DNA of 64,000 bases, from contig OMWY01000013.1 of the NCBI GenBank assembly GCA_900314885.1, forward strand, positions 1 through 64,000, given 5' to 3'. The position numbers and the translations under genes were made by a program. The stretch is from an uncultured Eubacteriales bacterium (GTDB lineage: Bacteria > Bacillota > Clostridia > Lachnospirales > Lachnospiraceae). The notes under the pieces were generated by a model, which was not told where the DNA came from, ran no database searches, and saw nothing but the letters and a program-made list of their open reading frames with translations. Position 1 is the stretch's first letter. Each line of letters opens with the position of its first letter. This document shows, piece after piece, positions 46,859 through 50,380 of this stretch.

Positions 46859-49800
46859 TTAGTTAATTACCTTCGGTACTCTTATTCTTTCATAATTGCC
46901 GTTATGCCACAGAAGGCCATCCGGGAATTTTGGTGCGGCTTTAAATGACTCAAGCGGGAAGGTAGACAGAGCACCCTGCTCGCCCAGCATCAGCCCCTCT
47001 GTAGTGTGTATAATGGTTTTAGCGATATCATCATAGGAGTTGACCTTAGCAGAATTCGCTGTAAAAATCATAGTGACACACACTCCTGAGCCTCTCTTTA
47101 TGAGATCAGGCACGTCATCCTCATAATCACTGCCATCAAAATATTTTGCGAAATCACTAAGCTCGTCTACGAGTAAATATACCGGAGAGAACCTATAGGC
47201 AATCTGCTTCGGACTTTCACTGCCATCATTGAGCAAGGCTTCCTTTAGCTTATTTTCCCTTTCGGTGACAATATTTTCAAATTCAGAAACGAATTCTCCC
47301 GCATTATCTTCTCCGTAATAATTGACATGCTTATCAGCTCTGTAAGAAAAGAGCTCCATCTCCTTTGAGTCAAAGAGGTATAGCTTAGCATCGTCAGCGA
47401 ATTTCTCAAGAAGCTGGTTAAGTATAAGGCGAAGCACGTTTGTCTTGCCCTTCTTAGCCTCTCCCAGAATCAGGAATGGAGTATCATTTCTCATCATGCC
47501 GCTTGGCAATACCTCTGATTTATTAAGTCCAAGGTAAATATCCTTTTTCGTATATGCATTTTCCACGAATTCCGCAAAATTCTCATCCGTAAGCTCCTCA
47601 GGAAGTACAGGAATAGACGGAGCCTTCTCATCCGGATATAAGCTGTTAATATCTGACACAAGCTTTTCAATCGCCTTCGTATACTCAATCTCATTTTTTG
47701 ATTCGCACATCGAGTAAACCTGCATAAAGGATATATTGTCTTTAATTTTTACAAATGCACGTCCCTTCACCTCCGACATTTTATAGTCTGTTTTTCCAAC
47801 CAGCGAATTAACGTCAGAATCATCGATAACATAGCCGCATATTTTATTTTTAAAATTATTGGCCAGCTGATACTTTAAAGCGCTGCCTCTTGTAGCCGAT
47901 ACTATAAAATAAATTCCGAGTCCCTGTCCATCACGCGTAAGTCTGTTCATAAAATCATCATCCAGATAGTCAAGCTCATGCACAGCGTCAATATTATCAA
48001 GCATTATGACGATTGCCTTCATACGCTTTTCGGGCTCAACCACCTTATTGTAGACTTCAAAGCTTTGTACGGCGGACACAGCGAGTTTCTTTTTTCTGTC
48101 CGCCATCTCAGAATTCATGATATTGACAAACTTATTTATACGTTCCTTATCATCAAGGCCTATATAATCAGATACATGGTTCAGGTTCTTAAGCGGTATA
48201 AGACCACTGTTACCAAAGTCAAGAAGATAAATATTTAACATATCAACGCTGTTTTTCATGGCAAGGCTAAGCGTTGCCGTTGTTAAAAATACGGTTTTTC
48301 CAAATCCGGCCGCGGCGACAAAAAGCACATTTCCGTCAGTTGCAAGGTTGACTGTATAAGGAATCTGTTCCTGCTTTTCCGGAATATCCACAAGGCCAAA
48401 ATCAATCGTCAGATTAGCTAAATTTCCATGCGCGTCTATAATTTCCACCGGACTCTTAATAATATCACCAAGCGGTGGCAGCCATGGCCTTGTAACCGGG
48501 ATTGCATTTAATCCCTGATAATAATCATGGATATAATCAACCGTAACATCCAGTTCTGTCTTTACTATTTTGTTCTTATCGTCTTCAATCGCAGATAAAT
48601 CAGGGTTTATTAATTCGCCCTGGCCTAAATCATTTATCACATAGACCCTGTTATCCTTAACGTCAGCATCACTCTCGTCGACAACCTGTGCCCCACTCCA
48701 GGCTGACTGGAACAGTTCATATATTTCATTGTTTCCTACCTGGAGATACGCGCGTCCTGTCTGGGTTATATTTGCGGCATCAGGAGTTTTTAATACCTCG
48801 TTGGAATCAGAAGCGTTCTGAACCTTAAGCGCTATCTTGAACTTACTGTTTGACCAGATCTGATCGTCCACGACGCCTGCCGGCTTTTGTGTCGCAAGAA
48901 TAAGGTGTACACCCAGGCTTCGACCTATACGGGCAGTAGATACAAGCTCGCTCATAAATTCAGGCTGTTCCTTCTTTAATTCCGCGAACTCATCACTTAT
49001 AATAAACAGATGCGGAAGCGGTTCCTTTGCATCCCCTGATCTGAAAAGCTTGTTATAGCTGTTAATATGGTTAACATGAAATATATTAAAAATCTCCTGT
49101 CTCCTAGAAAGCTCTGCCTTAATTGAAGCCATGGCTCTCAAACTCTCAGTCCCGTCCAGATTCGTTATGGTACCGAGAAGATGTGGCAGCCTGTTAAATA
49201 GACCGGCCATGCCACCGCCCTTATAGTCTATTAATAGAAACGCAACCTCATAGGGGCTGAAATTCACAGCAAGCGAAAGTATATAAGACTGAACAAGCTC
49301 TGATTTTCCCGACCCTGTGGTTCCGGCAATAAGTCCATGCGGTCCGTGCGCCTTTTCATGAAGGTTAAGATAGACATAATCATTCTCAGCCCTGGCACCA
49401 AGAGGTACCGCAAGTGATTTTGAAGAGTCATGCTTTCTCCACCTCTCGGGAATATTCATCTCCGCAGGACCCTTCACTCCATACATTCCAAAAAAAGTAA
49501 TACTCTTCGGAATATGGGAACCTGCGTCCTTCTGATGTTCCAATATCCCCAAATCTCTCGCTGTCCATTCGAGCCTGTCTACATTTAGGCTTTGTATACC
49601 AAACCTTTTATCCTTCTCCTTCCTTTCAGTCCTTTCTTTGTATGCCAAGTCAATATTTGACGGATTGTCTCCATGGAAGAGCTTATAATCAAATGCGCCT
49701 TCTGCCGCCCAGCCTCCAATCGTTCCGGCTCCTAATCCTATGAGAGTCGCGGTTCTGTCATCAGCACCGTTTATTTTTGCAATCTCCTCGCCTCCGGCAC

Positions 49801-50380
49801 CGGCGGCCTGTCCTGCCGCCATGGAAGTTAAGGTTTTAGCTGTGGTATATTTGATAGTTGACATAGTAGGGACTGTAGCCTTGCTTACCGCTCCTATAGG
49901 TGTCATTATTGATGTTCCTATTCCGAAGACAGTTTCAACAGCATTATAATTGGCATCATTTCCATGGAAAGCTCCGTCTAGCAGTGGATTCCACGCTCTG
50001 GTTACGGTATCGCCAATGCGACCACAGTATATATATTGGCTGCCTTCTACTGTATCAAAGAATCCAAATGTTAGGCTTCCGCCTCCTGCCGCTACTCCAA
50101 ATCCCACAACTACCGGAGTGGCAGCCCCAGCAGATAATATTATGCATGCCGCTCCTCCGACTACAAGTCCTACACCTGTTATTGTTTTTACTATGCCTCT
50201 GGTATCTCTTTCATCTTCACGTTCTATAGTGCTATATATCTTCTCCCAGTCGGCTTCGTATTCGCTCCGGTGTATGTTGTGGTTATTTGCCGCTGCGTTT
50301 ACTAGGTTCACTAGATTGACTAAATCAGGACTTGCAGGAAATGATCTACTCTCCTTGATTACATTAACTTTCTTGCGCAA
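46859..50380 (-). CDS. EssC-type FtsK/SpoIIIE ATPase fused to an LXG-toxin-like N-terminal region
   Basis: A 1173-residue protein. From about 290 it is a clear type VIIb secretion EssC motor: KSLAVPLGAR, Walker A AGTTGSGKS (352-360), FLLIDYKGGGMAGLF, Walker B LFIISDEF (DE 463-464), STARIGRSLGVHLILATQKPAGVVDDQIWSNSKFKIALKVQ. A second ATPase has a degenerate loop AAAGFGKT (690-697) and a third has GEAKKGKT (974-981). The usual two FHA domains and membrane region are missing. Instead residues about 40-235 resemble the glycine-rich middle of LXG toxins: two hydrophobic stretches (66-110), VEGSQYIYCGRIGDT and AWNPLLDGAFHGNDANYNAVE. The start is probably TTG with a weak ribosome site. No EsxA, YukD, EssB or EsaA gene is nearby. 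Confidence 0.85.
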   Translation of the reverse strand: MRKKVNVIKESRSFPASPDLVNLVNLVNAAANNHNIHRSEYEADWEKIYSTIEREDERDTRGIVKTITGVGLVVGGAACIILSAGAATPVVVGFGVAAGGGSLTFGFFDTVEGSQYIYCGRIGDTVTRAWNPLLDGAFHGNDANYNAVETVFGIGTSIMTPIGAVSKATVPTMSTIKYTTAKTLTSMAAGQAAGAGGEEIAKINGADDRTATLIGLGAGTIGGWAAEGAFDYKLFHGDNPSNIDLAYKERTERKEKDKRFGIQSLNVDRLEWTARDLGILEHQKDAGSHIPKSITFFGMYGVKGPAEMNIPERWRKHDSSKSLAVPLGARAENDYVYLNLHEKAHGPHGLIAGTTGSGKSELVQSYILSLAVNFSPYEVAFLLIDYKGGGMAGLFNRLPHLLGTITNLDGTESLRAMASIKAELSRRQEIFNIFHVNHINSYNKLFRSGDAKEPLPHLFIISDEFAELKKEQPEFMSELVSTARIGRSLGVHLILATQKPAGVVDDQIWSNSKFKIALKVQNASDSNEVLKTPDAANITQTGRAYLQVGNNEIYELFQSAWSGAQVVDESDADVKDNRVYVINDLGQGELINPDLSAIEDDKNKIVKTELDVTVDYIHDYYQGLNAIPVTRPWLPPLGDIIKSPVEIIDAHGNLANLTIDFGLVDIPEKQEQIPYTVNLATDGNVLFVAAAGFGKTVFLTTATLSLAMKNSVDMLNIYLLDFGNSGLIPLKNLNHVSDYIGLDDKERINKFVNIMNSEMADRKKKLAVSAVQSFEVYNKVVEPEKRMKAIVIMLDNIDAVHELDYLDDDFMNRLTRDGQGLGIYFIVSATRGSALKYQLANNFKNKICGYVIDDSDVNSLVGKTDYKMSEVKGRAFVKIKDNISFMQVYSMCESKNEIEYTKAIEKLVSDINSLYPDEKAPSIPVLPEELTDENFAEFVENAYTKKDIYLGLNKSEVLPSGMMRNDTPFLILGEAKKGKTNVLRLILNQLLEKFADDAKLYLFDSKEMELFSYRADKHVNYYGEDNAGEFVSEFENIVTERENKLKEALLNDGSESPKQIAYRFSPVYLLVDELSDFAKYFDGSDYEDDVPDLIKRGSGVCVTMIFTANSAKVNSYDDIAKTIIHTTEGLMLGEQGALSTFPLESFKAAPKFPDGLLWHNGNYERIRVPKVIN

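What the first reader, a model, noticed from the sequence alone, without database searches (positions are those of the whole stretch)
46859..50380. Orphan EssC-type secretion motor with an LXG-toxin-like N-terminus
Residues 290-1173 carry the three FtsK/SpoIIIE ATPases of type VIIb EssC with an intact first Walker A/B pair. The normal FHA-FHA-membrane N-terminus (over 450 residues) is absent. Residues about 40-235 instead look like the glycine-rich, hydrophobic middle of LXG polymorphic toxins (VEGSQYIYCGRIGDT, NPLLDGAFHG). The gene has its own promoter and is flanked by bidirectional or strong terminators, with no Esx, YukD, EssB or EsaA gene near. It could be a chimera from a deletion joining a toxin gene to essC, or a self-contained membrane motor that uses the toxin's hydrophobic region as its anchor. 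The long intact frame argues against simple decay.
Basis: partly seen in the sequence, partly recalled or inferred. Interest (0 to 1): 0.78.

Follow-up and report, generated by a model that had tools for sequence, protein, structure and literature searches.

The report
Deletion relic fusing toxin and motor
A gut-type bacterium that has lost its toxin-export machine (type VII secretion) keeps a scar in which the middle of a secreted toxin gene runs in frame into the back two-thirds of the machine's motor gene; it is most likely a recent deletion leftover without a proper start signal, not a new kind of motor.

Summary
The 1173-codon frame (46859-50380, minus strand) joins two unrelated parts. 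Residues 13-236 are the conserved hydrophobic middle of an LXG toxin: 48% identical to an LXG gene elsewhere in the same genome, and found only inside LXG proteins in 10 other family genomes. Residues 252-1173 are EssC ATPases D1-D3 (TIGR03928, 1033 bits); the FHA domains, membrane segments and D0/DUF are gone. The fusion was not found in any other essC-bearing genome searched. The 98%-complete genome has no other EssC, no EssB, no EsaA and no WXG100 protein above cut-off; most other LXG genes are broken. Relatives carry LXG (with this same middle) a few kb upstream of essC on one strand, so one in-frame deletion explains the join. The 5' end is also damaged: an excellent ribosome-binding site precedes an out-of-frame ATT exactly where LXG homology starts; the TTG start has none. 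The motor part violates 0 of 177 near-invariant EssC positions, so the event is recent or the motor is still selected. A 5'-truncated essC left after loss of the other core genes is already described in Staphylococcus aureus. Best reading: recent T7SSb deletion relic.

The parts
49673..50344 (-). LXG-toxin middle region (residues 13-236), LXG domain and C-terminal toxin domain both missing
   Evidence: 48-50% identical to own LXG gene on contig 8; 30-37% to the middle of LXG proteins in 10 of 397 family genomes, never joined to EssC; neighbours carry LXG Pfam domains
49628..49672 (-). Junction zone (residues 237-251): LXG homology has ended, EssC homology not yet begun
   Evidence: LXG match ends at 236, EssC match starts at 252 in the closest relatives
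46862..49627 (-). EssC ATPase domains D1-D3 (residues 252-1173), 5'-truncated essC
   Evidence: TIGR03928 1033 bits from profile position 374; 57-59% to Coprococcus catus / Eubacterium ramulus EssC residues 480-1387; AlphaFold pLDDT mostly 80-95 from residue ~610 and matches 4nh0, 4lya, 5fv0
49301..49324 (-). Walker A of D1 (GTTGSGKS, residues 353-360)
   Evidence: sequence; invariant in 20 EssC relatives
50057..50182 (-). Two hydrophobic, glycine-rich segments (residues 67-85 and 90-108), inherited from the LXG toxin
   Evidence: Kyte-Doolittle 2.01 and 1.66; same segments in the LXG relatives
50351..50356 (-). AAGGAG Shine-Dalgarno left over, 8 nt before ATT
   Evidence: -8.8 kcal/mol pairing to the 16S tail, reached by 1.5% of random positions
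50340..50342 (-). ATT where a start codon would be expected; out of frame with the ORF, stop after 5 codons
   Evidence: sequence and frame
50378..50380 (-). TTG, mechanical start of the ORF, without Shine-Dalgarno
   Evidence: +0.1 kcal/mol; stop codon three codons upstream
50416..50444 (-). Promoter-like site TTGTAA-17-TATACT with TG (weak evidence)
   Evidence: consensus scan only, 29 found against 16 expected
50468..50496 (-). priA terminator hairpin that separates priA from the relic
   Evidence: -28.1 kcal/mol, z -7.0, followed by a T run
46794..46825 (+). Terminator-like hairpin between the relic and the convergent queT-like gene
   Evidence: 13 pairs; z -4.2 on the minus strand

Best explanation
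This is the scar of a deleted type VIIb secretion locus. An ancestor carried an LXG effector gene upstream of essC on the same strand, as relatives still do. One deletion ran from the middle of the LXG gene into essC just before D1. It removed the toxin's C-terminus, the genes between, and the FHA, membrane and D0 parts of EssC, and happened to leave the two stumps in frame. A second loss at the 5' end removed the start codon and LXG domain, leaving the old ribosome-binding site in front of an out-of-frame ATT. The rest of the machine is gone from the genome and most other LXG genes are decaying. The product, if made at all, is most likely a non-functional, D0-less and unanchored (or wrongly anchored) ATPase fragment. 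Shown: the two parents, the missing parts, the missing machine, the parental order in relatives, the intact motor sites. Inferred: one deletion event, loss of the start codon, lack of function.
For: Both halves match different parents. LXG homology stops at 236 and EssC homology starts at 252. In relatives G228 and G157, LXG genes with this same middle lie about 4-6 kb upstream of essC on one strand, the order a deletion needs. No other EssC, WXG100 over cut-off, EssB or EsaA in a 98.3% complete genome. Of the five other LXG loci, three are frameshifted or cut after the LXG domain, a fourth has a stop in its 3' part, and one looks intact. No in-frame start with a good ribosome site near the 5' end, while the best site sits at an out-of-frame ATT at the point where LXG homology begins. 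The locus sits at a rearrangement point: in all four other genus genomes priA is followed directly by def-fmt-rsmB-rlmN, here that operon is on another contig. No second genome has the fusion. Precedent: S. aureus CBS2016-05 kept only a 5'-truncated essC after losing five core genes (PMC11652724). S. aureus EssC without DUF/D0 or FHA1 does not accumulate (PMC9436818).
Against: The motor part has no stop or frameshift in 922 codons and differs at 0 of 177 near-invariant EssC positions, so it is very recent or still selected. The lost start codon is inferred from sequence, not from an intact strain. Translation from the TTG or from internal starts (e.g. ATG 159 or 308) cannot be ruled out. EssA and YukD were not searched. 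1.7% of the genome may be missing.
Confidence: 0.8

Rival explanations
1. A working chimeric protein: the toxin's hydrophobic hairpin replaces the EssC membrane domain and anchors D1-D3, which act as a stand-alone ATPase, perhaps on the LXG proteins still encoded elsewhere in the genome.
For: Intact frame; all three nucleotide-binding regions present; 0 of 177 conserved sites changed; two segments of membrane-like hydropathy; at least one apparently intact LXG gene with accessory-type neighbours remains on contig 9.
Against: No Shine-Dalgarno at the TTG start and none good near it; no EssB, EsaA or WXG100; D0/DUF lost, whose removal makes S. aureus EssC undetectable; no second genome with the fusion; most LXG genes decaying.
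Confidence: 0.07
2. Assembly artefact: two contigs or paralogous stretches wrongly joined.
For: Draft genome in 26 contigs; the neighbouring operon order differs from all genus relatives; no reads available.
Against: The only similar stretch in the genome is 48% identical at protein level, far too different to cause a misjoin, and no second EssC fragment (such as its N-terminus) exists to be the other end. The frame runs through the junction, and the locus lies far inside a 71-kb contig.
Confidence: 0.08
3. A residual EssC motor kept for another task, such as binding or titrating LXG effectors, or a silent module kept for recombination with incoming T7SS loci.
For: D1-D3 intact; polymorphic-toxin loci often keep partial modules (N-terminally truncated TelE homologues likened to orphan modules, PMC10434224).
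Against: No positive evidence; substrate binding alone would not need the toxin middle; weak translation signals.
Confidence: 0.05

Closest known systems
Pseudo-T7SS of Staphylococcus aureus CBS2016-05 (PMC11652724)
   Same: Other T7SSb core genes lost; only a 5'-truncated essC left, explained by a deletion
   Different: There about 25% of essC remains at the normal locus; here about two-thirds remains, fused in frame to the middle of an LXG gene and at a rearranged site
T7SSb EssC (TIGR03928), e.g. Coprococcus catus and Eubacterium ramulus EssC
   Same: D1, D2, D3 with Walker motifs, 57-59% identity over 920 residues
   Different: FHA1, FHA2, two membrane helices and D0/DUF absent; no EssB, EsaA or WXG100 partners
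LXG polymorphic toxins (PF04740 proteins) with the GDxxTxAxNPxxD...FxGN middle
   Same: Residues 13-236, including the hydrophobic Gly-rich segments and the NPxxD-FxGN motif
   Different: LXG domain and C-terminal toxin domain both missing; ends in EssC
FHA-less EssC of T7SSc (Bacillus anthracis type, PMC11217815)
   Same: EssC without FHA domains and without EssA/EssB/EsaA
   Different: T7SSc EssC keeps its membrane region (it aligns from residue 187 of S. aureus EssC) and has its own partner genes; here the membrane part and D0 are gone and no partners exist

Membership tests
T7SSb EssC (TIGR03928 equivalog) | Three C-terminal FtsK/SpoIIIE-type ATPase domains D1-D3 | tested here: met
   1033 bits, above cut-off 778; fold matches 4nh0, 4lya, 5fv0; 0 of 177 near-invariant sites changed
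T7SSb EssC (TIGR03928 equivalog) | N-terminal FHA domains | tested here: not met
   No FHA hit; profile match starts at position 374
T7SSb EssC (TIGR03928 equivalog) | Two EssC transmembrane helices and D0/DUF domain | tested here: not met
   EssC homology begins after them, at residue 480 of relatives; the hydrophobic segments present are LXG-derived
Functional T7SSb | WXG100 (EsxA), EssB and EsaA encoded in the genome | tested here: not met
   No match over cut-off for PF06013, none for PF10140 and TIGR03929; EssA and YukD not searched
LXG toxin | N-terminal LXG domain | tested here: not met
   No LXG hit in the ORF; homology begins at LXG-protein residue 166, after the domain
LXG toxin | Conserved post-LXG middle region | tested here: met
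   48-50% to the contig 8 LXG gene; motif alignment
LXG toxin | C-terminal toxin domain | tested here: not met
   Replaced by EssC from residue 252
Pseudogene / deletion relic of T7SSb | Truncated gene ends, partners lost, damaged expression signals | tested here: met
   start-codon loss is inferred
Pseudogene / deletion relic of T7SSb | Relaxed selection or frame breaks across strains | tested here: inconclusive
   No frame break and 0 of 177 conserved sites changed in this one genome; no conspecific strains available

The most novel reading that the evidence does not exclude
The fusion is translated and functional: a toxin-derived membrane hairpin re-anchors the EssC D1-D3 motor, giving a single-protein ATPase that handles LXG proteins without EssB, EsaA or EsxA.
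Probability: 0.05. Interest if true: 0.8.

Novelty: new member of a known kind. Interest (0 to 1): 0.2.

Why it matters
As a relic it documents how a T7SSb is lost: the core locus goes by deletion, while scattered effector cassettes are left to decay. It also warns annotators that a top-scoring 'EssC' hit (1033 bits, above the equivalog cut-off) does not mean a secretion system. If the fusion were functional it would show that the T7SSb motor can be re-anchored and run alone, but nothing found here favours that.

Tried and rejected
A special EssC subfamily with this N-terminus: rejected, since no match reached residues 1-236 of the ORF as part of EssC in 70 other essC-bearing genomes of 299 in the family, 79 of 392 in the order (overlapping sets), or among the 76 loci of the pattern scan. 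Phage or plasmid origin: no viral relative, and plasmid matches cover EssC only. Reading the first 12 residues as the tail of the LXG domain: not significant (focused test p 0.55; best frame p 0.04 before correction for eight segments). EssC starting at residue 234-240 (PSNID like PENID): possible, but would need a 9-residue deletion in a block present in all relatives. Full-length AlphaFold: D1-D3 good, residues 1-292 pLDDT mostly below 30, with EssC rows misaligned there, so uninformative; the N-terminal part alone gave mean pLDDT 38, helical, uninformative. One search used an invented generic WXG-like query and shows nothing.

Full report
WHAT IS THERE. The window holds a 1173-codon frame on the minus strand, 46859-50380, with a TTG as its first possible start. 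Against NCBIfam the whole protein passes the EssC equivalog model TIGR03928 (1033 bits, cut-off 778), but the match covers only protein residues 251-1169 and begins at position 374 of the 1296-position model. Pfam sees three FtsK/SpoIIIE stretches and nothing in the first 290 residues. phmmer and Foldseek place the motor on EssC/EccC structures: 9qks, 4lya, 5fv0, 4nh0. AlphaFold models D2-D3 confidently and D1 mostly so.

THE OTHER HALF. Residues 12-236 match one further place in the same genome, an LXG gene on contig 8, at 48% identity (E 2e-55). That gene has a Pfam LXG domain at residues 30-134, and the similarity begins at its residue 166, just after the LXG part. In 397 genomes of the family, this region occurs in 10 other genomes, always at low identity (30-37%) and in frames of 160-985 residues, never in an EssC. 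Seven of these relatives were checked and all carry an LXG domain.

THE JOIN. LXG similarity ends at residue 236. EssC similarity is solid from residue 252 in the closest relatives and may begin slightly earlier. Full-length relatives are about 1280-1530 residues, and the match starts at residue 480 or so of the closest one. FHA domains, membrane helices and the D0/DUF domain are therefore missing here. The only membrane-like segments are residues 67-85 and 90-108, which belong to the LXG part and are also present in LXG proteins.

HOW UNUSUAL. The same query was run over 299 genomes of the family (71 with EssC-range matches, own included) and 392 of the order (80, overlapping sets). No match except the window's own reaches into residues 1-236 as part of an EssC. 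A pattern scan of 85,000 species genomes gave 76 EssC relatives. The single one whose match spans residue 18 onward (L067) proved to have separate essC and LXG genes. The fusion is thus a singleton as far as could be searched.

THE REST OF THE SYSTEM. The genome is 98.3% complete in 26 contigs. It has no other EssC (the other hit, L003, reads as the FtsK/SpoIIIE DNA translocase), no WXG100 above cut-off, no EssB and no EsaA N-terminus. The B. subtilis control rang for both of the latter. LXG domains above cut-off occur at five other places. Contigs 15 and 17 are frameshifted, the first contig 9 copy stops just after the LXG domain, and the contig 8 copy has a stop in its 3' part. A second contig 9 cassette looks intact (507 aa). 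The system as a whole is being lost.

THE LOCATION. In all four other genomes of the genus, priA is followed by the fmt-rsmB-rlmN block, with def in between where it could be read. In this genome priA is followed by the relic and then a convergent queT-like gene, while def-fmt-rsmB-rlmN sit on contig 11. The relic therefore lies at a chromosomal rearrangement point. A strong terminator separates it from priA (z -7.0). Gene names here are from my knowledge of the families, not from an annotation run.

HOW IT AROSE. In relatives G228 and G157, LXG genes with this same middle lie about 4 and 6 kb upstream of essC on the same strand. A single deletion between the two genes gives the observed order, with a one-in-three chance of being in frame. 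The 5' end tells a similar story. The TTG has no Shine-Dalgarno (+0.1 kcal/mol) and no in-frame start within the first 90 codons has one. A very good one (AAGGAG, -8.8 kcal/mol, reached by 1.5% of random positions) sits 8 nt before an ATT that is out of frame, exactly where the LXG similarity begins. The simplest account is that the start codon and LXG domain were removed by another deletion. This step is inferred.

RECENT OR ALIVE. Among 58 EssC sequences, the chimera's motor changes none of 177 near-invariant positions. If it had been free to drift, this would limit its neutral protein divergence to roughly 2% (95% bound from 0 of 177, my arithmetic). So the relic is young, or the motor is still selected. 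One genome cannot separate these. Missing partners, missing D0, weak translation signals, decaying effectors and lack of any second genome tip the balance to a young relic. In S. aureus, EssC lacking the DUF (D0) or FHA1 does not accumulate, and FHA2 is needed for EssB binding (PMC9436818).

WHAT IS KNOWN. S. aureus CBS2016-05 is described as having a pseudo-T7SS with five of six core genes lost and a 5'-truncated essC, attributed to a deletion (PMC11652724). The present case is the same kind of event in a Lachnospiraceae-type genome. (Family assignment: family-level relatives G029 and G163 match the held contigs of Coprococcus catus and Eubacterium ramulus.) It has the added feature that the stump is fused in frame to an LXG stump. 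FHA-less EssC proteins of T7SSc exist but keep their membrane region and their own partners (PMC11217815). No paper describing an LXG-EssC fusion turned up in six searches of the open library; subscription papers were not searched.

VERDICT. Real feature, correctly read as to parts; most likely an ordinary, recent deletion relic. Interest is low to moderate, with a small chance (about 5%) of a functional chimeric motor.

Noticed in passing
L061 9653-11233 (G000 contig 8, about 79652-81232): An LXG gene is inserted between hisG and hisD in the histidine operon; its 3' part carries a stop followed by further frame in the same phase, so the toxin end looks broken.
   Followed up: partly
L062 9905-11230; L063 9704-10117; L059 5389-6012: Three further LXG genes in the same genome are frameshifted or end right after the LXG domain, a sign of genome-wide decay of T7SS effectors.
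   Followed up: partly
L054 / L055 (also L064 / L065): A 19.8-kb stretch with a T7SSb locus is 100% identical between Coprococcus catus VPIC661 and Eubacterium ramulus ATCC 29099, next to integrase- and transposase-like genes: very recent transfer between genera, or cross-contamination of an assembly.
   Followed up: partly
window 50520-52781 and L171 9573-13513: The conserved priA-def-fmt-rsmB-rlmN gene order of the genus is split between two contigs in this genome.
   Followed up: yes
L133 6421-10666: essC of Clostridia bacterium UC5.1-1D2 is split into several frames: either another decaying T7SSb or sequencing errors.
   Followed up: no
L067 5477-9391; L066 6966-10802: Some Lachnospiraceae EssC proteins are short (1278-1304 aa); the L067 one begins close to its membrane helices, apparently without FHA domains, although EssB-like and EsaA-like genes stand upstream.
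   Followed up: no
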